64,000 nucleotides of DNA, taken from assembly GCA_030272155.1 (NCBI GenBank), contig CP126191.1:9012501-9076500 (forward strand), written 5' to 3'. Below the pieces are notes generated by a model that saw only the letters and a program-made list of their open reading frames with translations, did not search any database and was not told where the DNA came from. This DNA is from Tetradesmus obliquus. Its lineage: Eukaryota > Chlorophyta > Chlorophyceae > Sphaeropleales > Scenedesmaceae. Below are positions 9,439 to 39,000 of this stretch, piece after piece; within the stretch, counting starts at the first letter, position 1, and every line of letters starts with the position of its first letter. Position numbers and translations under genes: made by a program.

Positions 9439-10419
9439 GGCGCTGGCGCAACTGCAAAACAACAAAGTACAAAGTAAAGGGCATATGTCAAGCTTCCGTA
9501 CACATCTACCTGTGCGCAACATACCTGCACTGCACCTGCTTGTGCTGAGTAGGGTGTGCATTGACAAGGCTCTTGCAGCACAGGTGCAAGCAGCAAGCAG
9601 CACAGACACGAGACTGACACATTGTGAGCGCTGCTGACAGAGAGTTGTTTCGTCGTACACGTCAGCAGCGGACCAAAGCAGGCGTCAAAATGATGTATTA
9701 TACTTATTAGCATCACAGGTTTACCTTATGTGCTGACCATCTGGGCTCACCTGATGGAACCCAACAATCTCATCGCCTGAAGTGGGAGACAGGGGGCTGC
9801 CAGCTGGAGGGTGACTCAGCAAGCCAGGCAGCGGCTCGCTGTTGCTGAAGAAGCTAGGCTGCAATGCGTGGATGCGGCCTGTGTTGCTGCTGCTGCTGTT
9901 GTTGGCCACGGTGGGGTGCTGCATGCCGGGCACCATGGCTGAGCCGGCCAGCTGCTGCTGCAGATGCAGCAAATCCTCGTCCAATGTTGGTGGCAGAGGG
10001 GAGCTGAGGCTATCTCGCTGCTGCTGCTGCTGCTGGGGCAGCAGCTGCATTGCAAGCTGCTGCTGCCACTGCTCTCCGCCAAGTACCCGCGGCATAGACA
10101 GTGAGCCCATGATGCTGGCGTCTGTGTTGAGCATGCTACTGCGCGGGGCCAGGGCAAAGTCTGGGTGCCTCTGCGCAAACAAGCTCCTGCTGTGAATGTG
10201 GCCGCTGGAGCTGTGCTCCTGCAGCAGCTGCTGCTGCTGCTGCCGCTGCAACTGCTGCTGGTGCAGCTGCGGCAGCAGCAGGGCCTGTTGCGAGGCGCCC
10301 GCTAACTGCGCTGAGTGCTGGCTGCTGCTGGTTTGATGGGTGCTGCCGCTGGCACTGCCGCTGCCGCTGTGAGCACTGCTCGTGTGTGGTTGGCTGCCAA
10401 GGCTGCTCAGTGACATCAA

Positions 10420-10450
<31 letters not shown>

Positions 10451-10808
10451 AGTGCCAGCTGCAGGAGGTTGGTTGGTGGTGCCTCTGCTTCAGCTGAATG
10501 GCTGCTGCCAGACAGCTGCCGCATAAGCATGTTGAGCGAGCTGCTGTCAAGGCTTCTGCCGCTGCTGCTGTGCAGTCCTAGCTGCAGCTCTTGATGCATC
10601 TGGTGCAGAAGCTGCTGCTGCTGCTGCTGGTCCTGCTGTCTGTGTTGTGCAGCGAGCATGGGTCCGCACACTGCTGGCACTAGCGCTGGCCCTCCGCTGC
10701 CTGCTGCTTGCAGCACGTCTCTGCTGCCGCTGTTGTCCCACTCAGTGGCTAGCCCTGATGATCGGCTAACTGCCAGGGGTGACAGCTGCTGCTCAGCTGC
10801 AGCATCAG

Positions 10809-10845
<37 letters not shown>

Positions 10846-11297
10846 ATTGAGGATGGTGGGCTGCTCGCAGCTGAGCTGCCTGTGCAGTGCAGCAGCTGCC
10901 AAGCTGGGTGCTGCAGGGTCCTCCTGCAAGCTGTGTGTCCTCATCCAAGGGACGAGTGTTGCTGTAGGTGTGGAGCTGTCGAGTGCGGCAGCAGCTGCTG
11001 CTGCTGCTGCTGCCAGCTCACTGGGGTGATGCCAGGAAGCCAGGAGCGGCTGCTGGCCGGGCAAGCTGCATATGGCGTTGCTCTGTGCAGCACGCTGCTG
11101 CTGCTGCCGCTGCGGCTGCTGCGGCGGCGGCATCTGCAGCTTATTGTGCATGCGTGCTGCACGTGGCGGTGGTGGCGGTGGTGGTGGCGGCGGCTGGGGC
11201 AGCAGCGGTGGCGCAGCATTGCTTGCCCGGCTGCTCCTCCCGCTGTTGCTGCTGCTGCCTTGGGCTGGGATTTCTGTTTGATGATGGCAGCCTGGGA

Positions 11298-11330
<33 letters not shown>

Positions 11331-11509
11331 GGCTTTGTCTGAAGCTGCAACTGGCGGCACGCTGGCCACGCACAAACACAGCATCCCTGGCATGCCCTGT
11401 GGTCGGCATACTTATCTGATGTTGCCGCTGCTGCTGCTGCTGCTGCTGGCGTGTCATGCTGGTGCTGCCTGCTAAGGGGAAGGATTGTGTTGCTTGTTCA
11501 TGGCTGCAG

Positions 11510-11542
<33 letters not shown>

Positions 11543-11589
11543 GCCATCTGCAACCCTTGACAGTCGTTTCTAACCCCAGCAAAAAACAT
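8996..11589 (-). CDS. Gln/Ser/Ala-rich low-complexity protein, function unknown
   Basis: Two exons are supported on the minus strand: 11589-9751 and 9451-8996. They join in phase 0 across a GTGAGC donor and a TTTTGCAG acceptor, reading FHQ then LRQRLAAA, for about 764 residues. The protein is dominated by poly-Gln blocks, Ser runs, a poly-Pro block (about residues 130-145) and poly-Ala, all coded by CAG/CTG-type repeats. Short non-repetitive islands contain RQLS (twice) and a C-terminal amphipathic stretch LQHDLMLLQRQLDALSTR. I recognise no DNA-binding or catalytic domain. Composition like this is common in transcriptional coactivators and RNA-binding proteins of green algae, but that is only analogy. 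The start is uncertain: ATG at 11589 or the in-frame ATG at 11547. TTGCAG directly before the 11547 ATG could instead be an acceptor, in which case upstream exons with the real N-terminus are missing from this model. Confidence 0.6.
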
Positions 11590-19928: not shown

Positions 19929-21221
19929 TCACTGCTTTTGCTTTATGGATCCTGGATCTGCGCCATCTGCAGCAGTCCCGACCCCGCTGCCGTGCCCTGC
20001 TGCCAGCCACGCTACGTCTGCGAACACAAATTGGTACCACAGATAAGTGAGCGGTACAGTTGCTGCATGCCACAGCGCATGTGCGTCCAGCAGCCAAAAG
20101 AGCGGAGGGAAATCCAGCACTTCCAACAGCATCGCGACATGCACCAGTGCCATAAACTGGTACAGTATTCTTCTTCCAGGGTGCCGCACCCTGCTTACCC
20201 ACACAAGCCAGGTCAGAGCTGTTGCAAGCCCCACTGCTATACACAACTTCATGTTATAGCCGTAGTCAAACTTGATGAAAGCCATGTAGTATGCGTGCTG
20301 CAGCAGACCACCACCCAGCAACAATCCTAGCCCTAGCAGCTGCGGTGCGGTTTGCAGCGCCAGCACTCGCACCAGTGAAACACCCAGGCCTACAGTGACG
20401 GTGAGATCTGCTGAAAAGTAGTCGAACCGCTCGGTGATCCTTGTGTCTCTGCAGTGGAAGACAGAGCTCCACAGCCAGGCATTTGCGTTGACCAAGCTAT
20501 ACACCAGCCATAGCCAGTAGTAGGGGTACACACCGCCACCTCCACCACTGCTGGTGCTGCTGCTGTGGTGTGCATGTTGAAGGCCTGGCTGAGGGGAACT
20601 GCTTCTGCTCTTGCCCAGCAAACCAGCTGCTGCTGCTGCTGCTCCTGAGCTGCCGTTGCCACCAGCTGCTACTGACTTGGCCTGCAGGGACCGCATGTAG
20701 CGCAGGTAGCGCCGCATACAATGCATGTGTGCCAGCATGTTGGCGATGCTGAACAGCACACTGGCAAGCTCCTGGGCGCCAAGCACTCTAATGAACGGCC
20801 ACTTGCCAAAGTATTTGTAGACAGGACCTGCTGTTGATGCTGACTTTGGGCCCTCCAGCGCCCACATGCAATGATAGGAGCAGTCTGCTGCACAGTCCCA
20901 CTGCAAGAGGCGCAGCTGCAGGGGCGTGCTGTAGCTGTTGCGGCCCGGGCAGCTGACGTCGCACGTGTTGGCACTGCCTGGTGTCTTGGTGCAGCCTGTC
21001 TGCAGGCAGCTGGCATGGCACGTCTGGAACACGTGTGAAGCATCGCCCTCACTGCAACATGCCGGCTGCAGATGGCTTGCGTAAAGGGCGAGCAGCAGCA
21101 GCAGCAATAGGTGCAGCTGCTGCTGTGCTGGCCGTGGCCTGCTCGCCATGCTGGGGCCTGCTCGCCACCCCTGGGGCGTGCTTGTGTGACGTAAATGCAG
21201 TTTAGCCCCAAGTTCCGCCAT
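19929..21221 (-). CDS. Per1/PGAP3-like GPI-anchor remodelling membrane protein
   Basis: A single uninterrupted exon of 430 codons. The Per1/PGAP3 family acts in the ER/Golgi in fatty-acid remodelling of GPI anchors (removal of the sn-2 acyl chain) and belongs to the CREST superfamily of membrane hydrolases. Family features: a hydrophobic signal peptide (LHLLLLLLLALYASHLQ, about 37-53); a Cys-rich luminal part (CHASC, CDVSC, WDCAADCSYHCMW); the block YKYFGKWPFIRVLGAQELAS; VFHCRDTRITERFDYFSA; and near the end LEVLDFPPLFWLLDAHALWH followed by ATVPLTYLWYQFVFAD. The conserved His and Asp of the CREST core are visible in VFHCRD and DAHALWH. A Gly/Ser/Ala linker (about 185-235) is an insert. ATG at 21221 is the first in frame; ATG at 21149 puts the signal peptide closer to the N-terminus and may be the real start. 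Lack of introns is unusual here. Confidence 0.9.
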   Translation of the reverse strand: MAELGAKLHLRHTSTPQGWRAGPSMASRPRPAQQQLHLLLLLLLALYASHLQPACCSEGDASHVFQTCHASCLQTGCTKTPGSANTCDVSCPGRNSYSTPLQLRLLQWDCAADCSYHCMWALEGPKSASTAGPVYKYFGKWPFIRVLGAQELASVLFSIANMLAHMHCMRRYLRYMRSLQAKSVAAGGNGSSGAAAAAAGLLGKSRSSSPQPGLQHAHHSSSTSSGGGGGVYPYYWLWLVYSLVNANAWLWSSVFHCRDTRITERFDYFSADLTVTVGLGVSLVRVLALQTAPQLLGLGLLLGGGLLQHAYYMAFIKFDYGYNMKLCIAVGLATALTWLVWVSRVRHPGRRILYQFMALVHVAMLLEVLDFPPLFWLLDAHALWHAATVPLTYLWYQFVFADVAWLAAGHGSGVGTAADGADPGSIKQKQ

Positions 21222-21629: not shown

Positions 21630-24600
21630 ATGGCAGCAATGAAGGAGGATGACAGGACAAACCAGCGCCTGGAGTGGCTAGTGCAGCGCTTTGCACAAAG
21701 CAGGCTGTCTGCAACGTTTGCTGCTTGGAAGGTGGGATCCTGCTGTTTTGGAGGGAAGGCAGCAGCGCAGACCAGCAAAGATGTGCTGCACCATGCTGAA
21801 TCTGCTGTGCTCATCCCGCAGGAGGAAGCAGAGTTTGAACGCAGCGTGCATCAGCTGGATGCGCTGCTGCAGGGCTGCGAGGTGGGTCTTGCATAGGACC
21901 CTAGCTGGTCTGTGTCCTGCAAGCACGACACCATTAGCGCAGCTGCTTGTGCTCAAAGATTACGACTGCAACCTCCCTGCACCTGCCTACTAGTACGGAT
22001 CCCAAAGCTTCTCTACCCCCTCCGCATGCTTGCAGGATGTGTTTGACTTGCCGCCACATGAGCGCCGGCAGGCTGCAGTGTCAGCAGTGCTGCAGCTGCT
22101 GCAGCGCGTTCCGTTGCTGTCAGCGCTCTGCCCGGCCGCCCAGCAGTTTGTCGCTGCACATGCCAAGCTGCTGCTGCTGTCAGACGCAGTGGAGATGCCA
22201 ACGTAGGTGCAGCAGTTGCAGGAATGTTGGATGTCTGCTTGGACAGCCCGTATGAATATGTCTGCAACAAATGGGCTGCAAACAGCGGCAGAAGCACAAG
22301 CGCAGCAATAGCTGATGCTGATCACTGTTGCAGCACACTCTACACATTTCCCTTGTATGTTTCTGCCTCTCCTGCAGGTGCCCTGAGGACAGCCAGCAGC
22401 TGTATGCCGTGCTATGCGGCAATGTCTCATTAGTACATGGGGATGCAGCAGACCCCCAGCTGCAGCCGCTGCTGGCACAGGCAGCAGCCCATCAGCGGCA
22501 GCAACAGCAGCAACAGGCAGCTGGCGAGGCTGCAGCAGTGGCTGCTGCTGCAGCAGCTGCTTCCAGCGCTTCAGCAGAAGAATCGGCAGAGCTTGCCACA
22601 GGCAGTCACACACAGCAATGCAGTGGGGTAGGCCCCAGCCTTTGCAGGAACTCTGCCACAGGTGCCACGCAGCAGCCATGCCGCTGCCGCGGCATCTGGC
22701 GCCAGGTAAAGGAAGAAGTTAGTGCTGCGCAGAAGCGGCAGCTGCACAGCAGCACGGCTGGCCAGGCGCTTGGAGCCGCTCACTTGCAGCCAGCCAATGA
22801 CCGCAGTCAAGCAGCCGCTGCAGCAGCCAGCTCCCAGGCAGCAGCAGCAGCAGCGGCGGCAGGCAGTGCAGAGACAGGGTCAATGCTGCCAGGGTGTGAC
22901 GCTGCTGCGCTGCTGAAGAGCATTAGCCTGGGAGCAGCGGGGCCAGGCCAATGCTTCTGGTGGGTGCCAGCAGCACACAGCTGCAGCCGGCAACCCACAC
23001 ACCTGCAACAGATTGTCACAACGGTTGAAACAATACAGCACACACTTGCAACAGGACAACAAGACAGTACATCACAGGCGGGAGCAGCTGTGCCCAAGGT
23101 TGTTTGTGGGCGTCGCACGAGTTGCTGGGTTTGGCTGTAGTTGAGTATAAGTTCACCGAAGCCACCCCTGAGCCCATTGTATGTCTGCACTGCCTGTTTT
23201 GCAGTGGCTGCAAGTTTGCACAGAGCTGGTCCAGTGCCGCAGCTGCTGCTGCAGCAGCCTCCATGAACGACAGCCACAGCGGCGGCGACGAGGGTCTGTC
23301 GCATGTAGCGCTGCCGTGCAGCTGCCTGGCAGCAGTGGCTGAGTCCAATAAGGTTGTGGCACTGCTGGCTATCAGCCGGCCGGTGTACATGGAGGTGCGT
23401 GCGGTGCACAGCAACACCAGCATGCAGCTTGCAGTGGCATGCTGCTCTTAGCAGAGACATATGGGCGCTGCCAGGCACGGCACATGGAAGCGCCTGCTGC
23501 TGCTTGCTTTCAATATAAAGGTCCAGTCCATGCAGCAGTGTGCATGACGCTGGACGCTCTTGCTAGACGGCGTGCGTGCCTAGCAGCTCACCTTGGACTT
23601 CGGCCGGCCCTCATCACCAACCTACGCCTGCAGCCGGCCTGCATGACACTGTTACTGGCAGATGCCACAATCACAGTACTGGTGAGTCATGTCTGCTTGG
23701 TGAACTCTGCATGCCATGCCAGGCCTGCAGGCTGCACCGCGAAGCGCACGTGGCCCGCTTGGTTGACGCGCTGTGCCGGCTGCCGTGCCTGCGCCACACG
23801 CCCATCAAGGAGCTGCACAGGCTGGCCTGCCACCTCAAGGAGGCAACATACCAGCCAGGTGAGCTCGAAACGAGTGTGCTGATGCAAGCAGCACCTGGCA
23901 TGCAGCAGGAACAGCAGGCGCTGCAGGCGCTGAACTACACAGAGCTGGCAGGAGCGTCATGTGCAACGGCCAGCCAAAGGTCTTGCTGCACCTGCAACTG
24001 CGCGCTCCACTGCTTTGCTCGCAGGGGAGGCATGTGTTCAGTCTGGTAGCTGCATCTCAGCAAGGTGTGCATAGCTAAAAGTCTGTCTGCGGTCAGCGTT
24101 GCAGTAAGACGCAACCACGTGTGCGTGTGCTGCTGCTGCCAGGGCAAATGCTGCTGCACCAAGGCAGGGAGGTGCCAGACATCCACTTCCTCATCAGCGG
24201 CAGTGTGCTGCTGACATACTCTGCGCCGCTAGCAGCAGCAGCTAAGCCCGGCCACCTGCTGAGCAGCAACGGAGCCGCACTCGTGCTGCCATCGCTCGCA
24301 GCAGCAGCAGCAGCAGCAGCGCCTGCCGTGAGTGGGTTGCCGGCTGGGCCTGCGGCAGCAGCTGCAGCGGCCGTCGTTGCGGCTGTTGCAGCCGGCGGCA
24401 GCAGCAATGGCGGGCCGCGCAGCAGCGGCCTTGCAGACTTGCTGCGGCTGGGGCAGCAGGCGGTGCAGCCTGCTGCTGTGGTGGGGGTGAGGTGCGCGGC
24501 TGCGCTGCGGGCCAGCTTGCAGCGTTGCGCTGCTGCTGCTTTGCGTGCCAGTATGTGATCACTGGGCAGGGCATGTGCTTGCACTGCATGATGTTGAGGG

Positions 24601-27600
24601 GTGATTGTGCGGTGTGGTTACTGTGCCTGCCGGAGCAGCAGGCACAGGCTGCGTCACACGTCGCAGCAGCTTTCATGTAATACTCTGCGCGCGCACCGCC
24701 CCTGTGGCTCACATTATGCAATTGCAACATGAACTCTACGCAACTGCAGGGGCCCTGGGGCAGTGCTTGGTGACGATGCGCTGCGTGAGAGGCGCCTGGC
24801 GGTTGGCGTGCTGGCGGCAACAGCAGTGACCACCCTGAAGATAGAAGTGCTGAAGTTCATGTCATGCATGGATCCCCTGACATTGCGTCTGCTTGGGCGG
24901 CTGCAGCAGCAGCAGCTGCCAGAGCAGCAGCGCCTGATACAGGTGGGTAGGTATTGGCACATGATATACACACATGTATCCACTGCTTCAATGGCTTGAA
25001 CATGAGTGCCGCATTGGCAGAAGGGTCATGCAGTTCAATGTACTTCAAAGCAGCATCACCTGCACCTACTCAATCTTTGAACGAGCAGCACACCAGCAGT
25101 CACAGCACTGCCACATTCACAGGCGCCACAGAAGGCGCGTGCAAAACAGAGCCAGTTTGGCTGCACGTGCACACAACTACCTTGCTTCAACTCATCCACA
25201 CACGGCTGTGCATCCTTGCTGTTGTATGCTGCTGGCGCTGACGTGGCGCGGGTGTGTCTCCTGCAGGGCGTGCTGGAGGCAACAGACACCCGCAGCCACC
25301 CGCAGGCGCAGCAGCTGCACAGGTCAGCGATTCTTGCAGAGGTGTACCAGTCTACGCAGCTGCCTTCCACGCTTGTGAGGCCAGGCGATGACGCAGCCCA
25401 GTCTGTTGACGCACATACTGCTGAAGAAAAGCCAGCCTGGCATGCTGGCAGGGTCAGGGATCATGCTGCACATGGCACATGCAAAGGTGGCAGGGATGCA
25501 GGTGGCGGCACTGGTAGGAAGTCCCCGGCACGCACCAGCAGCCATGGAAACGGGCTCCAAATGCCAAGGCAGCAGGCACAAAGGTCTGCTGTTGCTTGTG
25601 CTGGTGCTGTGCATGACTCCAGAGAACTGCAGCAAGCTGCCGCAGGTGTGGTGCAGCGGCCTCGAGGTTTAGGATCTGGATCAGGGTCAGGGTCCAGGGT
25701 GCGGCTGAACCCTGAGGATGAGGCCTGGGAGGCTGGCCTGCCGCGGGGCTTGACCGTGGACAAGTGTGCCGGGCTGCCACAGAGTGCGTCAGTGCAGCAG
25801 TTGATGGAGGTGAGAGGAATGCAGCTCGGGGTTGGTTAGTAGGGGAAAGGCGGATGTGGGTGTGGACTGAGTTGACGGAACTTGGAAGAGAAGTGGACAG
25901 CAGCCCCATGTGGTGAGGGTGCAACCACTGCTGGCAGCTGGTGCCCTGCCTGATATGTTTGGGCTCAGCTGCAGCGCATTGCGCAGCAGCATGGCGATTG
26001 GTGGTTGGCTTCTCGCAGCATATGCCCATGCGTTGCAGCTGGGACGTCGGCATGCCGCTTGCAGTTTGCGGCAGCCGGTAACGCTGCATACTGTTGTTTA
26101 GACACACCAGCATGGCTCAGCTTCTAACGCCTGCTCCTTGTGCTGCCTGTTTCAACCTGTAGGCGATCAGGGATGTAGACGAGTTCAGGCGCATGCAAGG
26201 CTCACTGCTGCTGCACAGCAGCGACACAGTCAGCATGAACCTCGCACTGAACAGCATCGCACCAGCACAGAATGCGTCAACCACAGCAGGCCAAGCCAGC
26301 AGGGCCAGCGGCGCAGCAGACCTAGCGCCACCGCTGGCAACATTGCGGCTGCCGCGCATGCCACCAGGTCCTGCTGCAGCCGCAGCCGCACTCGGCAGCA
26401 GCGGCACGCTGAGTGCCGACGCAGCAGCAGCTGTAGCTGCAGCAGCTGCTGGCACTGGCGTGCATACAGAGCTGGTTGAGGCGTGTGGGGTTGCTGTGCT
26501 GCAGCTGTGTGTGCTGCCTGGGCAGGCTGTGGTGCCTGGAGGGGTGCTGGCGAGTGCACTGGAAGATGTGGCGGCTGCAGTGGCTGCTGTGTGCCATGAT
26601 GAGGGCCTGCAGCTCATCAGATGGGCAGCTAGGCGGTGGCTGCTGCTGGCGCAGCTGGAGCCAGGTGGGAGCTGTGTGGGCTGCTGCCGTTGCATATGCA
26701 TGCGTGTGTATTGCCTGGGGGCATGCTGCTTGACATGCGCGTAGGGCACAGCCTGACGTGCTGTTGCATAGGTTTGCTGCCTCTTATGGGGTGCAGGCGC
26801 CAACTAATTGCTCCCCCAATACTTGTGACATTGTGGTTGCAGCGTGCGAGTGCTTGACGCACTCACAGGACCTTCACATGGGCTCACGCAGTGACACAAG
26901 CTGCCGGCTGTGGTGCGGTGTGCCTGCGGTGTGCCTGCGTGGTTCTTGCAGGAAGCTCAAAGCGTGCTGGTCTGGAGGGCTTGGCAGATGCATTGCTGTC
27001 ATCAGCAGCCCGCATGGCTGGCGTGCTGTCACGCAGCGAGGGCTTGCCGGTGCTGGGCCTGGCTGCAGGCGTAGCAAGCGGCAGCTGCTTCGTGCAGTAC
27101 GAATGTGAGCGATTAGCGTACTGCAAAGAGCTGTAGCAGCTGCCAGCTGTATATCATAGATTGTTCAGTGATGGCCAAGTCCTGCAAGGTGCTGGTGACC
27201 AGCGGGATTGCAAGCTGGGTGAACTGATTGTGACTGACCTTGCTGCACCTGATGATCATCTGCAATTGATGCATCTGTCGCTGTTTTGCTGCAGCCGGCA
27301 ACTTCGTCTGCAGCATATCAGGCCACGCTTACGATGCAGCTGCCGAGCTATGCAGTGCAGCGCAGTCGATGCTTCTCACAGCAAGCATCAGCCCACCAGG
27401 CAGCACCAGCAGCAGCAGCAGCAGTCACGTGGCGCTGCTGCTGTCAGACGGCGCAGCAGGCTGCCTGCAGACAAACTTCTGCCTTGAAGCCTGTGCTGGC
27501 GGCTTCCTGCTGACATCAGCTCGAGCTGGCCTGCCAGCTGGACCTGCAACCGCCAGATCCACCTCAACCCTGAACCACCAAACCCTCGGCCCCGGCCGCC

Positions 27601-30600
27601 ACACCCTGCTGGGTGCGGCAGCAATGGGTGCTGCGCTGGGCGCTGCGACGCCTAAAACACCTGGAGTTGCTGCTGCCGCGGGGCGCAGGTGCGCTGGCAA
27701 GTCGCAGCAGCGGCGCCGCATGCGCAGGAAGTTTGAGGCGCTAGAAGACTTGCTGGCGGGTGCGTGTGATGTGCTGCCGCCGCCTCCTGAGCACCTGCTG
27801 ACTCAGCCACCGCCGGCATCTGGCAGCGGAGCTGCTAGTGAATTAGTCAGCCCTGCTGACGGCCGCAGCAGGGATGGGGCAGCAGCAGGCGGCAGGGCGC
27901 GCCGGCCCAACCTGAAGATTTCAGTTGTTGTGGATGGGGTTGCGGGGTTAGGCGGTGTTGGTGGTGTGAGTGCTGTGACTCCTGGTGGTGGTGGCAAGTC
28001 GGTTGAGCTGGGAGTGGCGGGGGAATGCGGGGCAGCAGATGCCCTGACGCCTACACTCATTATGGACAGCCCGCAGTGGGGAGTGCATTGTGGTGCAGCA
28101 GGTGGCCAGCATGGCAGCAGACAGCCGACAGGACAGCAATCAGCAAAGGCGGCCAAGTCAGGGCTACGCAGTCCTGCGCGGGCGAGTGTTGTAGCAGCTG
28201 GTGCAGCAGCAGGGGCAGATGGCGAAGCAGCCAGCAAGAGCAGTGCCACAACACCAGGCAGCACAGGCAGCAGTAGCAGCAGGCAAAGTCTGAGGCAGCA
28301 AGTGTGGCAGGAGGTGGCAGAGCTGCGCGAGCGGGAGGTGTCCATGGCAAATGGCTTGACAGTTGCTACTGCTACTGCTGCTGCCACACCATCTAGTTGC
28401 AGCAGCAGTCACAGCAGCAGCAGCAGCAGCACCAGCAGGCGGCCTGCGCTGCATCTGGCTGTTGGCTCAAATGCACAGCAAGGTCAATGCAGCAGCACTT
28501 ATCCTGCAGGCATTGCAGCAGCGCCTTCACAGCACGGCTTGCCGGGCAATACGTTTGATGGTAGCAGTGCCGGCAGGGCGGCTGCAGTGAGGTCAGCATT
28601 GAAGGTGACCTTCCAGTCACCACGCAGCAGCAGGGCACATGGTGCCAGCAGCAGCGGCAACACCAGCAGCGCTGGGAGCCGCAGCTCTCCATCTGTGCAA
28701 TCAGTCAATCACGCAGGGACAACTCTGCTGGCTAGCAAGCAGCAGCATCATCACCAGCAGAGCCGCGGCACTAGCCAGCAGCAACAGCAGCAGCAGGCGC
28801 TGCAGGAGGAGCCGAGCCTGCAGTCAGTCAACAGCTTGTCGATGTTCCCAGACCCGTCAGCTGGCTGCGGCTGCAGCAGCAAGGGTGCGGCTGGGCCAGC
28901 AGGCAGTGCACCCTTTGGGCCATCAAGCAGTGCGGGCAGGTTGCAGGAGGAGCGGCAGCATGCGCTGGTGGTGTCTGCCTGCAAGGCTTTGGGCAGCAAT
29001 GCTGCTGCTGACGCGTATGTGGCAGCATTGCCCGCTGGCCTTCTGGCGGTCAACCTGTCAGCCGCAGGTATGCTGTGGGCCGTTGGCGTATGCATGGAAC
29101 AGCCTGTCGTGCTGTGAAGTTTTCAACTGCAAAGCGGTGCAAGCCAGGTCGAAGTGATTGGCCTGGGCTGTGACCACGGCCTAACCGGACAGATATGTGT
29201 GTCAAACTATGCGAGATTCGCAGCCTGGCAGCATCCCAATGTGCCTGCTGTCGCGCAGCTTCACCCCTGTCGTGTTGTACGCGGCTGCAGCCTGCTAGGC
29301 AATGTTTGAGTCGGTTTGCGCTCGTACACTTGCTGTGACTGCCTGTATGGCTGATGGTGTGCTGTGCAGGCCTGGCACGGCTGCCAGTACTGCAGCACCT
29401 CACAGAGCTGGACAGCCTCGCTGCCTCCTTCAACAACATCAGCAGCCTGCCGCAGCTAGTGCCCGTGGATGCAGCGGCAGTGGCGGCAGCAATAACGGCA
29501 GCGGCCGACACTGGCAGCAGCAACAGCAGCAGCAGCAGCACAACAGGCGTGGAGGAAGCGGATATGGATCCAACGTGTTGTCCTGGAGCATCTGGGACAG
29601 CGCCACCTGCTGCTGTTGAGGTTGCGGCGCAGCTAGATGTGCTGCTTGTGTCCAAGGTGCCATCGGCACTGCCTGGCTGCCTGACACAGCTAGGGCTGGC
29701 TTACAACCAGCTGGCCTGCTTGCCATTGGAGCTGCCAGCTGCCCTGCCAAAGCTGACCTCTTTGGACTTGTCACACAACAAGTGAGCGCTCAATGCAGCT
29801 GCGCTTCTGTCAACTTTTTGCAAGTTGCTTCAGCTCCCTGGTCAGACACCTCAACCCCTTCACACGGTCTTTTCAGTTTTTCTGCAATGTTTCACATGCG
29901 TGTTTGTTCATGTGCAGTTTCAGAGGGCCGCCAGGTGGCTAGAAGTGCTACAAGGCATCAGCAGCAAGTTTATATGTCGTGCTGTGTGACCTGCAGGCTG
30001 CAGGAGCTGCCCTGCACGTTTGCGGCGCTGTCCTGCCTCAAGCTGCTGTTCCTGGCGCACAACCAGCTGGCAGCGCTGCCCAGCAACCTGACGCGCCTGT
30101 TCCTGCTGTCAACCCTGGATGTGAGCCACAACAAGCTGCAGCAGCTGCCGCAGGACCTGCAGCAGCTGCAGAGCCTGGCCCAGCTGAATGTGCAGCATAA
30201 TCAGCTGGTGCGATTACCGCAGGGGCTGTCTGGCCTCACTGGGCTAGTGAGCTTAGCAGTTGGGCATAACCAGGGGCTGCAGCTGCCGAGAGGCAGCTTA
30301 GCTGGACTGAGGGGTCTGACTTGTTTGCTGTTGGCTGGAGTGGGCCTGACTGATGACAGTTTAGATGCAGCAGTGCAGCAGGACAGCCCTCCAGATACCA
30401 CAACAGTGGCAGTAGCAGCAGCAGAAGCTGGCGCAGTGCATGCAAGCAGCAGCGTCATACCTGCATCAGTGGCACCCGATGCGGCCGCAGCAACAGCAAC
30501 AGCGGCGCCTGCAGGGGTGCCTGTGGCTGTGCTGCCGTCTTTGCGGGTGCTGGATGTTTCGCACAACCAGCTGCAGCTGCTGCCGCAGTGGCTGCCACCT

Positions 30601-30921
30601 TCGCTTTGCTGCCTGTGTGCAGCAGGCAACAGGATACGTGAAGCGTCGGGTGATGTGCTTGCAGGGCTAGCAGGCAATCTGCTGCAGCTGGACTTGCAGG
30701 ACAATGTGCTGCATGACGTGCCAGCACAGCTGCGGCTGCTGGTGCGGCTGCAGGTGTTGGCACTTCAGGGCAACCCTGGTTTGGACCCAGAGATAGCAGA
30801 CAAAGGCATGGGGCTGGGCTGGGCCTACAAGTGGTGGGCTACACGCAAGACTTCTGCTGCTTCTGCTGCACAAAGAGCAGCTGCACTGGCGGTGCAGCAG
30901 CGTGCACAGCAGCAGAGTTGA
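21630..30921 (+). CDS. Giant cNMP-binding-like / cyclase-like / LRR protein
   Basis: Sixteen exons, fifteen of them placed: 21630-21731, 21822-21881, 22036-22202, 22378-22959, 23205-23394, 23475-23681, 23723-23858, 24143-24491, 24750-24942, 25267-25809, 26163-26664, one unresolved exon between 26665 and 26951, 26952-27104, 27295-29067, 29370-29781 and 29997-30921. Every placed junction keeps phase, giving about 2,100 residues. Order: a short helical N-terminus, cNMP-binding-like domain 1 (split by a long Ala/Gln insert), domain 2, a low-complexity linker, a degenerate class III cyclase-like region, a long Ser/Gly/Gln linker with a basic patch (QQRRRMRRKFEALEDLL), and LRRs to the end. No transmembrane segment is evident, so a cytosolic role is likely. 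The start at 21630 has the context CCATGG; 21516 is an in-frame alternative. The reading across 26.66-26.95 kb is the weakest link; without it this could be two genes. Function is unknown; a cyclic-nucleotide signalling scaffold is inference. Confidence 0.75.
22036..23394 (+). other. cNMP-binding-like domain 1, interrupted by a low-complexity insert
   Basis: Exons 3-5 of the giant gene. LPPHERRQAAVSAVLQLLQR followed by VPLLSALCPAAQQFVA resembles the helical entry of cyclic nucleotide-binding domains. CPEDSQQLYAVLCGNVSLVHG matches the strand pair that normally reads G..(D/S)..(Y/F).(I/V)..G.V. The usual phosphate-binding cassette is not recognisable. After about 200 residues rich in Ala and Gln, LAAVAESNKVVALLAISRPVYME matches the closing strands and helix. 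It is probably a degenerate, non-binding copy. Confidence 0.5.
23723..24942 (+). other. cNMP-binding-like domain 2
   Basis: Exons 7-9 of the giant gene. Splicing 23858 to 24143 rebuilds a continuous motif: ATYQPGQMLLHQG followed directly by REVPDIHFLISGSV. This is a close match to the first half of a cyclic nucleotide-binding domain (PGE.L...G.....Y.I..G.V). An Ala-rich insert of about 90 residues follows. Then GPGAVLGDDALRERRLAVGV and LAATAVTTLKIEVLKFM match the second half, where the phosphate cassette normally reads FGE.AL....R.A.V. The cassette Glu is replaced (GDDAL) while Arg residues remain, so ligand binding is possible but not assured. Confidence 0.7.
26440..27480 (+). other. Degenerate class III nucleotidyl cyclase-like region
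   Basis: Exons 11-14 of the giant gene. The second half is the better match: LPVLGLAAGVASGSCFVQYE, then SGNFVCSISGHAYDAAAELC, then HVALLLSDGAAGCL. These correspond in order to the strands and helix that in soluble-adenylyl-cyclase-type domains read (V)(K)IGLAAG..., ..(V)IG.AV....L.. and ..I..S......L. The T|CC phase across 27104/27295 supports reading them as one chain. In the first half, GVAVLQLCVLPGQ and LIRWAARRWLLLAQLE sit where F(V/L)D(I/V).GFT and (I/L)KFAGDALLA(L/V)W are expected. Both metal-binding Asp positions are lost, so it is inferred to be catalytically dead. This rests on eye alignment only. Confidence 0.4.
29032..30780 (+). other. Leucine-rich repeat domain of the giant gene
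   Basis: Exons 14-16 (end of 27295-29067, then 29370-29781 and 29997-30921). About eleven LRRs of 22-23 residues with the pattern L..L.L..N.L..LP, for example LTSLDLSHNKLQELP, LKLLFLAHNQLAALP, LSTLDVSHNKLQQLP and LAQLNVQHNQLVRLP. Two Ala/Ser-rich inserts break the array. It ends with LALQGNPGLDPE and a short basic tail, like the cap of plant intracellular Ras-group LRR proteins. The first repeat is split by the 29067/29370 intron (VNLSAAG joined to LARLPVLQHL), which ties the LRRs to the upstream exon. Confidence 0.9.
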
Positions 30922-36008: not shown

Positions 36009-39000
36009 ATGCCTGAGGAGCAGCTGCCCCAGGACAAGCCAGATGGCTTGGAACAGCATGCAGTGCAGCCTGCCCCTGCTGCAGGCTTCCTGCAAGCAGC
36101 GATAGGTGCCCAGCAGCTGCCTCAAGAGCATCCAGCGTCAAAGCTGACAGAACACAGCATCAAAAAGGGTGCAGCAGGCATTGCAGCAGCAGGTGCTGCC
36201 ACCAGCGTGTCTGCTGTGTTGGCTGGCAGTAACCTCAGCGCCGTAAACAACGGCGCTACCATCAGCACCAGCAGCAGTAGCAGTGCTAACAGCACAGCAG
36301 TCAATGCAGGAGGAGGTCAGCTGGCTGCCCTGCCATTACCGGCAAGTAGCAAACCAACATCTGCAGGACCAGGAGGAACAGCAGCAACAGTAGCAGCTCA
36401 ACCCACTGGCAAGACAGCAGCACAGACAGCAGCAAACACCGCCTCAGCTATTGTAGCGGGTGTAATGGCTGCAGCCAGCAAAGGCAGCAGCAGCAGCAAT
36501 ACAGCTACGAGCAGCAACAGCACCAAAAATGCCCCAACAACACAACAAACTATGCCTGCAGCAGGAGCTGCCACCCCTGCCGCCACAAGTGGTGGAGCTG
36601 CTGCGGGTAGCATAGGTTCTGCTGGGGCGCCCGCTGCACCAGCAACCAGCGCAAACAGTACTACAGTAGCTGCTGCAGCCGCTGGCCAGCCATTGGTGCT
36701 GCAGCTGCCACAATCCAATGCAGCAGCGCAGGCAGCAGCAGGGCCAAGAGACGAAGAGGGCAACACCAAGCTGCACTTAGCAGCACGCTCAGGGGATGTG
36801 AGGGGTGTCGCCGCACTGCTGGCGGATGGCGCGGACGTTAACGTGCGGAACAGTCGGCAGCAGACGCCGCTGCACCTGGCAGCTGAGGCAGGCAAGATTG
36901 AAACAGTCGAGCAGCTTACGCAAGTGAGTGCCGTGGACATGGCAGCAGCCGTACCATGCAGGACACTCTTGTTGCTCTATCGAGACAAGCAGTCAATAGT
37001 GTAGCAGGTGACAATTATTATATATCCCTGCTATGCATTGCTGTTGGAACATTCCACATCAGCAGCATTCCACAAGCTCACAGGCTCTTGCAGGACAGTC
37101 CGACTGAAGCTGCCTGCGCTGTGGCAATGCCCCCTGCGCTGTGTTGTTTGCTGCTGTGCAGTGCGGGGCGTGCATGTGGCACGCGCTGGACCAGGACAGC
37201 CAGACGCCGCTGGTTGCTGCGGTGCATGCCGGCTGCCTTGAGGTGGTGGCGCTGCTGGGTGCTGAGCGCAGCCACATGCACTACAAGGTGCAGTGGGCAG
37301 CGCAGCACGGCCACCTGCAGGTAAGAAAGCATGGACACACCTTGTTCCGGGGTTGAGTTTGGCTGCAGCATGACATACTGTGCCACTGCTGATCCCCGTC
37401 TATATCAACAACGTGCAAATCACTTGCAGGCCATGCTGCGTGCGCAACTGCTGCATGCATCGCCGCAGCTGCTGTTGGCTTCACGCGCCTCATCTGCCTC
37501 ATGTGTGCACAGGTGCTGAAGGAGCTGCTGGATGTAGGCGCACCTGTTGACCTGACCTGTGAGGCTGGCTGGACGCCGCTGCACAGGGCCTGCTTCAGCG
37601 GCCATGCTGCAGTGGCACAGGAGCTGGTGGTGGCGCGCAAGGCCAACATGCTGGCAGCAACAAAAGATGGCAGGACGCCCATCCTACTGGCGGCACAAGG
37701 TGGGGCCAAGCTCTGGTCAAGAGCCGTCCATGTATGGCAGCTGCTTGTCGTTGTTTCCAGGGGCCACCAGCTTACGGCGTGCGGCGCAAGTGGCCGAGGA
37801 GTCCAGGAAACGCTTGCAGCCGAGGCACTGCCAGGCTGTGTTGACCGCATGTGTGGCATCCACCACTGCTGTCACAGCTGCTTTCTCTACTGTCGCTGCT
37901 GCTGCTAGGCGGCAATGCGGACATTGTGCGGCTGCTGCTGGAGAATGCCAGCAGGCTGCCCCAGGACTTCAAGACCAAGGAGGGCTGGAGCAGCAACCTG
38001 TTGCAGGTGCGGCGCGCTGACTTGCATGCCTGCAGGACAGCAGCACAGCTGAGCAGCTGAGGCCATAGAGCAGCAGACAGTGGCTGCCAGCAGCAGTGAG
38101 CGGTGTTGGTCTGTACGGCTCATGCTGTCAGGCGCTATCATGCAGCGGTGGCAACCATGGCACCAGCAGTAGCTCTGCCGCGTGTCGCAGAGGGTTCTGC
38201 CCTCACTCTGGCAAGAGGCATTGCCTGCCAGTTGTGCTTCTGTCTCGCCTTTTTTGTTCTGCAGCTTTGACTTCTAGATAGTATTCAACTATGTTCACAA
38301 CGCAAGCTGGGTATCTGATGCTCTTTCCCTCTGGCGTGGAATACATGCTTCTGCAGCACAAGACGCGCAACCCTGCCGATCCCAAAGACCCAGGGCTGAA
38401 CTTGCTGCTGCTTGGAGCTAAGCATGGTCACGCGGCAGTGGTGAAAGTGGCCATCCAGCACAGGTGAATGCAACAGATCTGCGGCAAGTATGACAGCCAC
38501 AGACAGTTCTAGCAGTAGATGGCTAGCTGGCTGGCTGGCTAGCCTTGCATGGCTCTGCAGCATCAGACGGCCATGCCTTGAGACCAGCCCCGGCAGTATG
38601 CATGCGAGGCATTGTGCAATGAGCTGCCAAACTCACTCTGGTTACTGTGCATGCTTTGTCTTTGCCGCCTGTCGCCAGGGCCAACCTGGGGGCTGTTGAC
38701 TCGCTGGGCCGCTCAGCGCTGCACCATGCCTGCCTGGGAGGGACCGCAGCACACCTGGCAGTTGTGAGGGTGAGCTGTGAACTGTTGGAAAGAGTAGTTC
38801 AGCAAACTGTACGGACCTGCCAACGGGTCTGCACACATGCACTGCAGTGCACTGCTTGCACATCGGCGCAGCTGCTGTCGCCGATGCGTCGTGAGCGGTG
38901 TTTACTGTGTGTCTTCCCGGCAGTCTATCGCTGCCGCATCTGTCATTCTGGTGTGTCCTGCAACCTGTGCTGTCCTGCAGGTCCTGATTGAGGCAGGCAT

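What the first reader, a model, noticed from the sequence alone, without database searches (positions are those of the whole stretch)
21630..30921. One predicted protein joins two cNMP-binding-like domains, a dead cyclase-like region and LRRs
The domains are normally found in separate proteins; yeast adenylyl cyclase has LRRs with a cyclase but no cNMP-binding domains. Here the best cNMP motif (YQPGQMLLHQG then REVPDIHFLISGSV) is rebuilt exactly by splicing, and the cyclase-like exon runs straight into the first LRR. A receptor or scaffold that senses cyclic nucleotides with a pseudo-cyclase would be a new arrangement. Seen: motifs and phase. Known: family patterns. Inferred: function and lost catalysis.
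Basis: partly seen in the sequence, partly recalled or inferred. Interest (0 to 1): 0.85.

Follow-up and report, generated by a model that had tools for sequence, protein, structure and literature searches.

The report
Algal scaffold with dead cyclase domain
A gene in a green alga appears to encode one large soluble protein that strings together two cyclic-nucleotide-binding-like domains, a cyclase-like domain without its catalytic acids, and leucine-rich repeats; this is a new-looking combination of known parts whose function is still a guess.

Summary
Fourteen GT-AG exons (21630-30921, +) join into one 2,028-residue frame, and each exon scores best in that frame. LRRs are certain (LRR_8 3e-25). 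CNBD-B matches PF00027: 24.7 bits as it stands (cut-off 27.5), 30.2 with its Ala-rich loop left out. CNBD-A is degenerate: no Pfam match, but 0 of 200 shuffles reach its profile score. The cyclase-like region has no Pfam, PDB or NCBIfam cyclase match and fails against ordinary class III cyclases. Against a soluble-adenylyl-cyclase-type profile it is the one peak along the protein; 0 of 500 shuffles reach it. Both metal-site segments lack Asp/Glu, so catalysis is probably lost. About 490 low-complexity residues separate it from the LRRs. No paralog was found. Cyclase+'RNI-like' in Chlamydomonas and LRR+two CNBDs in trypanosome PKAR are in print; my searches found no report of all three modules together. 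Likely a non-catalytic scaffold: a new variant made of known modules, with ligand and partners untested.

The parts
21630..30921 (+). whole gene model, 14 coding exons: 21630-21731, 21822-21881, 22036-22202, 22378-22959, 23205-23394, 23723-23858, 24143-24491, 24750-24942, 25267-25809, 26163-26664, 26952-27104, 27295-29067, 29370-29781, 29997-30921
   Evidence: splice sites, phases, 2,028-aa open frame; codon score best in model frame in 14 of 14 exons
22087..23391 (+). CNBD-A, degenerate cNMP-binding-like domain (aa 72-366), exons 3-5, with a 156-residue Ala/Gln-rich insert at 22445-22912
   Evidence: 0 of 200 shuffles reach its hhalign score; glocal z 3.0; 1 of 142 natural ORF pieces as good; no Pfam match
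23759..24873 (+). CNBD-B, cNMP-binding domain (aa 380-570), exons 6-8, with an Ala-rich loop at 24226-24474
   Evidence: Pfam PF00027 2.3e-5, 4.4e-7 and over cut-off with the loop left out; PKG-I CNB 1e-3 in PDB
24751..24801 (+). phosphate-binding-cassette-like segment of CNBD-B (GPGAVLGDDALRERRLA, aa 530-546)
   Evidence: alignment to PKG-I
26469..27533 (+). sAC-type cyclase homology domain (aa 877-1072), exons 10-12, degenerate
   Evidence: not detected by Pfam, NCBIfam cyclase models or PDB sequence search
26490..26534 (+). segment at the first metal-Asp position, no Asp or Glu (VAVLQLCVLPGQAVV)
26604..26648 (+). segment at the second metal-Asp position, no Asp or Glu (GLQLIRWAARRWLLL)
27534..29012 (+). 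low-complexity linker, 493 residues (aa 1073-1565)
   Evidence: sequence; no Pfam match
29013..30819 (+). leucine-rich repeats (aa 1566-1995), exons 12-14, nine repeat cores by pattern, with a long insert between repeats
   Evidence: Pfam LRR_8 3e-25; PDB best matches LRRD1 and SHOC2 with the inserts left out; pattern count

Best explanation
One gene encodes a soluble signalling scaffold: degenerate CNBD-A, better preserved CNBD-B, one catalytically dead cyclase homology domain of the soluble-adenylyl-cyclase (ADCY10) type, a long flexible linker and SHOC2-like LRRs. Shown: one spliced open frame (as a prediction), LRRs, CNBD-B, no acidic residue at either aligned metal position. Supported: sAC-type ancestry and CNBD-A. 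Inferred: CNBD-B binds a cyclic nucleotide or related purine ligand, the dead cyclase domain serves as a dimerisation or regulatory surface (alone or with a live cyclase of the same cell), and the LRRs hold a partner such as a small GTPase or phosphatase, so that the protein relays a ligand signal without making one.
For: gene model; LRR_8, PF00027; CNBD-A and CNBD-B against shuffles and natural ORF pieces; sAC-type profile: score 23.4-23.6, 110 columns in order, 0 of 500 shuffles, single peak along the protein; 0 of 49 other window chunks reach it; 7 of 300 bacterial chunks do, all 7 being cyclase or GGDEF pieces; no Asp/Glu at either metal site; the same genome holds matches to canonical CNBD and class III cyclase families, so cNMP signalling is likely there.
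Against: Pfam, NCBIfam and PDB sequence searches find no cyclase. Generic class III profile: hmmsearch nothing, 66 of 200 shuffles as good. First sAC profile weak, 27 of 300. Glocal test only z 2.8, with 3 of 600 shuffles and 2 of 117 natural ORF pieces as good, against z 9.8 for the human sAC C2 domain. HMMER with the very alignment that works in hhalign gives only 1.6 bits for the region and nothing useful on the whole protein. CNBD-A lacks a cassette; that of CNBD-B is short and has Asp for Glu. No transcript, ortholog or structure model.
Confidence: 0.55

Rival explanations
1. The cyclase-like region is not a cyclase relative but an Ala/Leu-rich linker that happens to align; the protein is a CNBD-CNBD-LRR protein.
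For: No Pfam, NCBIfam cyclase or PDB match; generic class III profile no better than shuffles; smaller sAC profile and glocal tests marginal; HMMER with the larger profile 1.6 bits.
Against: 0 of 500 shuffles and a single in-register peak with the 26-sequence sAC-type profile; at that score the 7 natural bacterial hits were true cyclase or GGDEF pieces; a full-length alignment through the main conserved blocks.
Confidence: 0.18
2. Two neighbouring genes: a CNBD protein ending near 25.8 kb and a separate cyclase-like/LRR protein.
For: The exon 9/10 junction is phase 0 and has the only TAG acceptor of 13; reading on into intron 9 meets a stop after 27 nt.
Against: Frame, splice sites and codon use run on without a break; no TGTAA signal between 24.7 and 31.7 kb, though the gene's own 3' end lacks one too, so this says little.
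Confidence: 0.1
3. The domain acts as the non-catalytic half of a cyclase heterodimer (as sAC C2 does for C1), so the protein is a regulatory subunit of a live cyclase rather than a passive scaffold.
For: Cyclase domains work as dimers (established knowledge); the genome holds other class III cyclase matches, 11 at 5 places.
Against: No partner is known; no interface test was possible.
Confidence: 0.2
4. A PKA-R-like regulator resembling kinetoplastid PKAR (LRR plus two CNBDs, not activated by cAMP).
For: LRR and two CNBDs in one protein are described for TbPKAR (PMC6440977); an RRxA sequence (RRQA) stands at aa 64, just before CNBD-A.
Against: Opposite order, extra cyclase-like domain, no RRx[ST] site anywhere in the protein; the RRQA lies only 8 residues before the aligned domain, closer than I recall for PKA-RI.
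Confidence: 0.06
5. A decaying pseudogene.
For: Both CNBD-A and the cyclase-like domain are degenerate; no second copy found.
Against: 2,028 codons open, 13 intact introns, codon bias in 14 of 14 exons.
Confidence: 0.05

Closest known systems
Trypanosoma brucei PKAR (PMC6440977, passages)
   Same: LRR region plus two CNB domains in one protein; altered residues in the ligand pockets
   Different: LRR is N-terminal there; has the RRTTV site; no cyclase-like domain described in the passages seen
Soluble adenylyl cyclase ADCY10 and its bacterial relatives (Chloroflexota loci)
   Same: nearest profile for the cyclase-like domain
   Different: one domain instead of the C1-C2 pair, no metal Asp, CNBDs in front and LRRs behind
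Chlamydomonas cyclases with 'RNI-like' partner domains (listed in PMC5632652, passage)
   Same: cyclase and an LRR-type fold in a green alga (that RNI-like means LRR-type is recalled)
   Different: no cNMP-binding domain among the 13 partners named there; those are counted as cyclases, this one looks dead
Fungal adenylyl cyclase CYR1 (recalled)
   Same: LRRs with a cyclase domain
   Different: LRR lies before an active cyclase there, with RA and PP2C domains; no CNBD
Toxoplasma PCR12 (PDB 9ya0; PMC12819142, passages)
   Same: best PDB sequence match of CNBD-B (2e-4); large structural protein with CNBDs
   Different: no shared architecture shown; several CNBD-like stretches in a conoid ring protein

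Membership tests
cNMP_binding (PF00027), CNBD-B | Pfam score over the curated cut-off | tested here: inconclusive
   24.7 bits as it stands (cut-off 27.5); 30.2 bits with the Ala-rich loop left out
cNMP_binding (PF00027), CNBD-B | phosphate-binding cassette with Glu and Arg at standard spacing (recalled) | tested here: inconclusive
   GDDALRERRLA: Asp for Glu, Arg present, segment shorter
cNMP_binding (PF00027), CNBD-A | Pfam match | tested here: not met
   none; only a home-made 9-sequence profile supports it
class III nucleotidyl cyclase (PF00211) | Pfam match | tested here: not met
   none, while human sAC C1 and C2 match at 2.1e-10 and 2.3e-11
class III nucleotidyl cyclase (PF00211) | two metal-binding Asp | tested here: not met
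   no Asp/Glu in either aligned segment
sAC-type cyclase homology domain | sequence profile similarity beyond chance | tested here: met
   0 of 500 shuffles, single peak; but smaller profile 27 of 300 and HMMER only 1.6 bits
ADCY10 / sAC protein | tandem C1-C2 domains and NTPase region (recalled) | tested here: not met
   one peak only along the protein; no Pfam domain over cut-off other than LRR in the pieces scanned, which together cover the protein
LRR proteins | Pfam LRR_8 over cut-off | tested here: met
   88.1 bits, 3.1e-25
PKA regulatory subunit | RRx[ST] or RRx[AG] inhibitor site before the tandem CNBDs (recalled) | tested here: inconclusive
   no RRx[ST] in the whole protein; RRQA at aa 64 stands 8 residues before the aligned CNBD-A; not evaluated further
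cyclase or CNB fold by structure | three-dimensional model | not tested

The most novel reading that the evidence does not exclude
A new class of cyclic-nucleotide pathway scaffold in green algae: the protein pairs its dead sAC-type domain with a living cyclase, reads the product through its own CNBD-B, and passes the state to an LRR-bound partner, giving feedback at the site of synthesis.
Probability: 0.15. Interest if true: 0.75.

Novelty: new variant of a known kind. Interest (0 to 1): 0.48.

Why it matters
If orthologs keep the order, green algae would have a protein that combines cyclic-nucleotide reading and a dead synthase domain with an adaptor, a testable route to the poorly known effectors of algal cAMP/cGMP signalling. 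Pseudo-cyclases outside the sAC C2 and membrane cyclase pairs are few (recalled). It also warns that Pfam at its cut-offs would show this gene only as an LRR protein.

Tried and rejected
Generic class III cyclase profile (21 sequences): hmmsearch nothing, hhalign 66 of 200 shuffles as good. First sAC profile (18 sequences): hhalign 27 of 300 as good. Glocal PSSM from 33 sAC-type sequences: 1 of 150, 3 of 600 and 4 of 400 shuffles as good, 1 of 400 with a Ser-rich loop shortened, 2 of 117 natural ORF pieces as good (these were not checked for true homologs). Only the 26-sequence alignment (25 of 32 loci listed, plus human) is clear, and only in hhalign; HMMER with it gives 1.6 bits. It is the third profile tried in hhalign, which should be weighed. 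The 300 bacterial control chunks were a random part of a set from which pieces with three cyclase motifs had been removed; 5 cyclase pieces slipped through the filter.

CNBD profile: only 9 of 30 fetched loci passed my motif filter and were used.

Viral collection hit L027: 33 residues at 48% in a phage contig; a search of the whole record with 603 residues found nothing; rejected as chance. An extra exon at about 23510-23681 was considered and dropped: it would need a ~41-nt intron and has poor codon scores. Paralog search with cyclase-like and CNBD-B regions: beyond the gene itself only hits with E above 0.3; a human sAC C2 query gave one hit at 0.26. Of the 14 other CNBD matches of this genome 8 loci were read and 7 of 8 show a canonical cassette. 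Poly(A) signal test uninformative. NCBIfam gave encapsulin 2B (3e-8, far below its cut-off) for CNBD-B, a family that I recall carries a cNMP-like domain. Papers: searches found no report of the three modules together. Seen: passages of PMC6440977, PMC5632652, PMC12819142, PMC11971395, PMC2447327 and PMC1592074 (the last three without use here); all others search listings only.
Full report
Setting. The window lies in a 104.7-Mb, 17-contig genome. GC is about 57%; green-algal, perhaps Sphaeropleales (Tetradesmus-like), is my recall, not a test. The gene is bounded upstream by a divergent Per1/PGAP3-like ORF on the minus strand (19929-21221; PF04080 9e-84) and downstream by a plus-strand frame beginning at about 31665, seen by eye.

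Gene model. I placed 14 exons by hand from the sequence and checked them by script. Codon scores trained on the other exons favour the model frame in 14 of 14 exons; exon 6 is marginal. The junctions inside the domains restore sense: YQPG|QMLLHQG in CNBD-B (exons 6/7) and the cyclase-like domain across exons 10/11/12. No transcript was available.

LRRs. Pfam LRR_8 3e-25, five stretches; nine repeat cores by pattern. The best solved relatives by sequence are LRRD1 and SHOC2 (inserts left out), which shows the type of repeat, not orthology.

CNBDs. CNBD-B matches PF00027 at 2.3e-5 (24.7 bits, cut-off 27.5) and at 4.4e-7 (30.2 bits, profile 3-86 of 89) when its Ala-rich loop is left out. Its PDB neighbours are Toxoplasma PCR12 (2e-4) and PKG-I (1e-3). 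CNBD-A has no Pfam match, yet with a 9-sequence bacterial CNBD profile 0 of 200 shuffles reach either domain, with or without the inserts (inserts left out: A 23.4 against shuffle maximum 22.05, B 30.2 against 21.65). In a glocal test A has z 3.0 and B 6.4, while neither resembles the cyclase profiles (z -1.2 to 0.9); 1 of 142 natural ORF pieces equals A and none equals B. A lacks a Gly-Glu...Arg-Ala cassette; B has GDDALRERRLA.

Cyclase-like domain. Standard searches fail: no PF00211, no PDB match, no NCBIfam cyclase (one unrelated hit at 0.21), while human sAC C1 and C2 match PF00211 easily. Against 21 ordinary class III cyclases it does no better than shuffles (66 of 200). By eye GLAAG...F.C.ISGHAYDAAAEL resembles sAC C1, so I collected sAC-type domains, most from Chloroflexota (70 of 151 genomes with a match). 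With 18 of them hhalign was weak (27 of 300 shuffles as good). A glocal test with 33 gave z 2.8 against 9.8 for human sAC C2 and 11.7 for a canonical cyclase of the same genome. With a 26-sequence alignment hhalign gives 23.4-23.6 over 110 columns in the right order; 0 of 500 shuffles reach it (maximum 22.97). Along the protein the 193-residue piece at 865 is the peak (23.5), the neighbours at 817, 913 and 961 give 17-20 and all others 14.3 or less. Against this, HMMER with the same alignment gives the region only 1.6 bits and the whole protein nothing useful. Of 49 other window chunks none reaches 23.5 (best 18.3); of 300 bacterial chunks 7 do, and on inspection 5 are pieces of the very cyclases that fetched the loci and 2 are GGDEF proteins (named by their motif, recalled). 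So at this score the method returned only cyclase-fold relatives in that sample. For scale, human sAC C2 scores 63.5 and the own cyclase 96.0. I take sAC-type ancestry as supported, not proven.

Catalysis. In the alignment the first metal Asp falls in VAVLQLCVLPGQAVV and the second in GLQLIRWAARRWLLL. Neither segment holds any Asp or Glu, so the loss does not hang on the exact register. Activity with a partner cannot be excluded.

Genome context. Searches with the cyclase-like and CNBD-B regions return only this gene plus chance-level hits. The genome has 14 PF00027 matches, 11 PF00211 matches at 5 places and at least 133 LRR_8 matches (150 of 441 candidates scored). By position none of the listed CNBD or cyclase places lies within 10 kb of a listed LRR (nearest seen: C17, about 13 kb, not examined). 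Exon-by-exon searching would miss divergent cases such as this gene, of which only one LRR exon appears in those lists.

Literature. Chlamydomonas is said to hold over 100 cyclases in over 20 domain combinations, with 'RNI-like' among 13 partners and no cNMP-binding domain among those named (PMC5632652, passages). T. brucei PKAR has an N-terminal LRR region and two CNB domains and is not activated by cAMP (PMC6440977, passages). Searches found no paper on all three together; the library is open-access only.

Conclusion. A new-looking combination of known modules in one predicted protein, with no second copy found in this genome. The likely role is a non-catalytic scaffold; ligand, partners and orthologs remain to be tested.

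Noticed in passing
window 19929-21221 (-): Single-ORF Per1/PGAP3-like gene (PF04080, 9e-84), head to head with the gene studied.
   Followed up: partly
window 9721-11589 (-): 622-codon ORF extremely rich in Gln and Ser; not tested for coding.
   Followed up: no
window 36009-37004 (+): ORF whose end looks like ankyrin repeats (TKLHLAARSGD, TPLHLAAEAGK) after a long Ala/Ser/Thr-rich stretch; named by eye.
   Followed up: no
G000:C11:2323209-2324237, C7:6069447-6070405, C2:7480483-7481453, C17:1414708-1416950, C10:2597326-2603541: Other cNMP-binding matches, several close together in pairs; 7 of 8 loci read show canonical cassettes (PKA-R/PKG-like by eye).
   Followed up: partly
window 24676: The only TGTAA inside the gene model lies in intron 7; none follows the stop codon up to 31.7 kb.
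   Followed up: partly
window aa 64 of the gene, in exon 3 (22036-22202): RRQA, an RRxA sequence 8 residues before CNBD-A, could be read as a PKA-RI-like pseudosubstrate; spacing looks wrong by recall.
   Followed up: no
L034:5262-5840 (-), L040:5776-6354 (-): GGDEF-type domains score 29-32 against a sAC-type cyclase profile, in line with the shared palm fold (recalled).
   Followed up: partly
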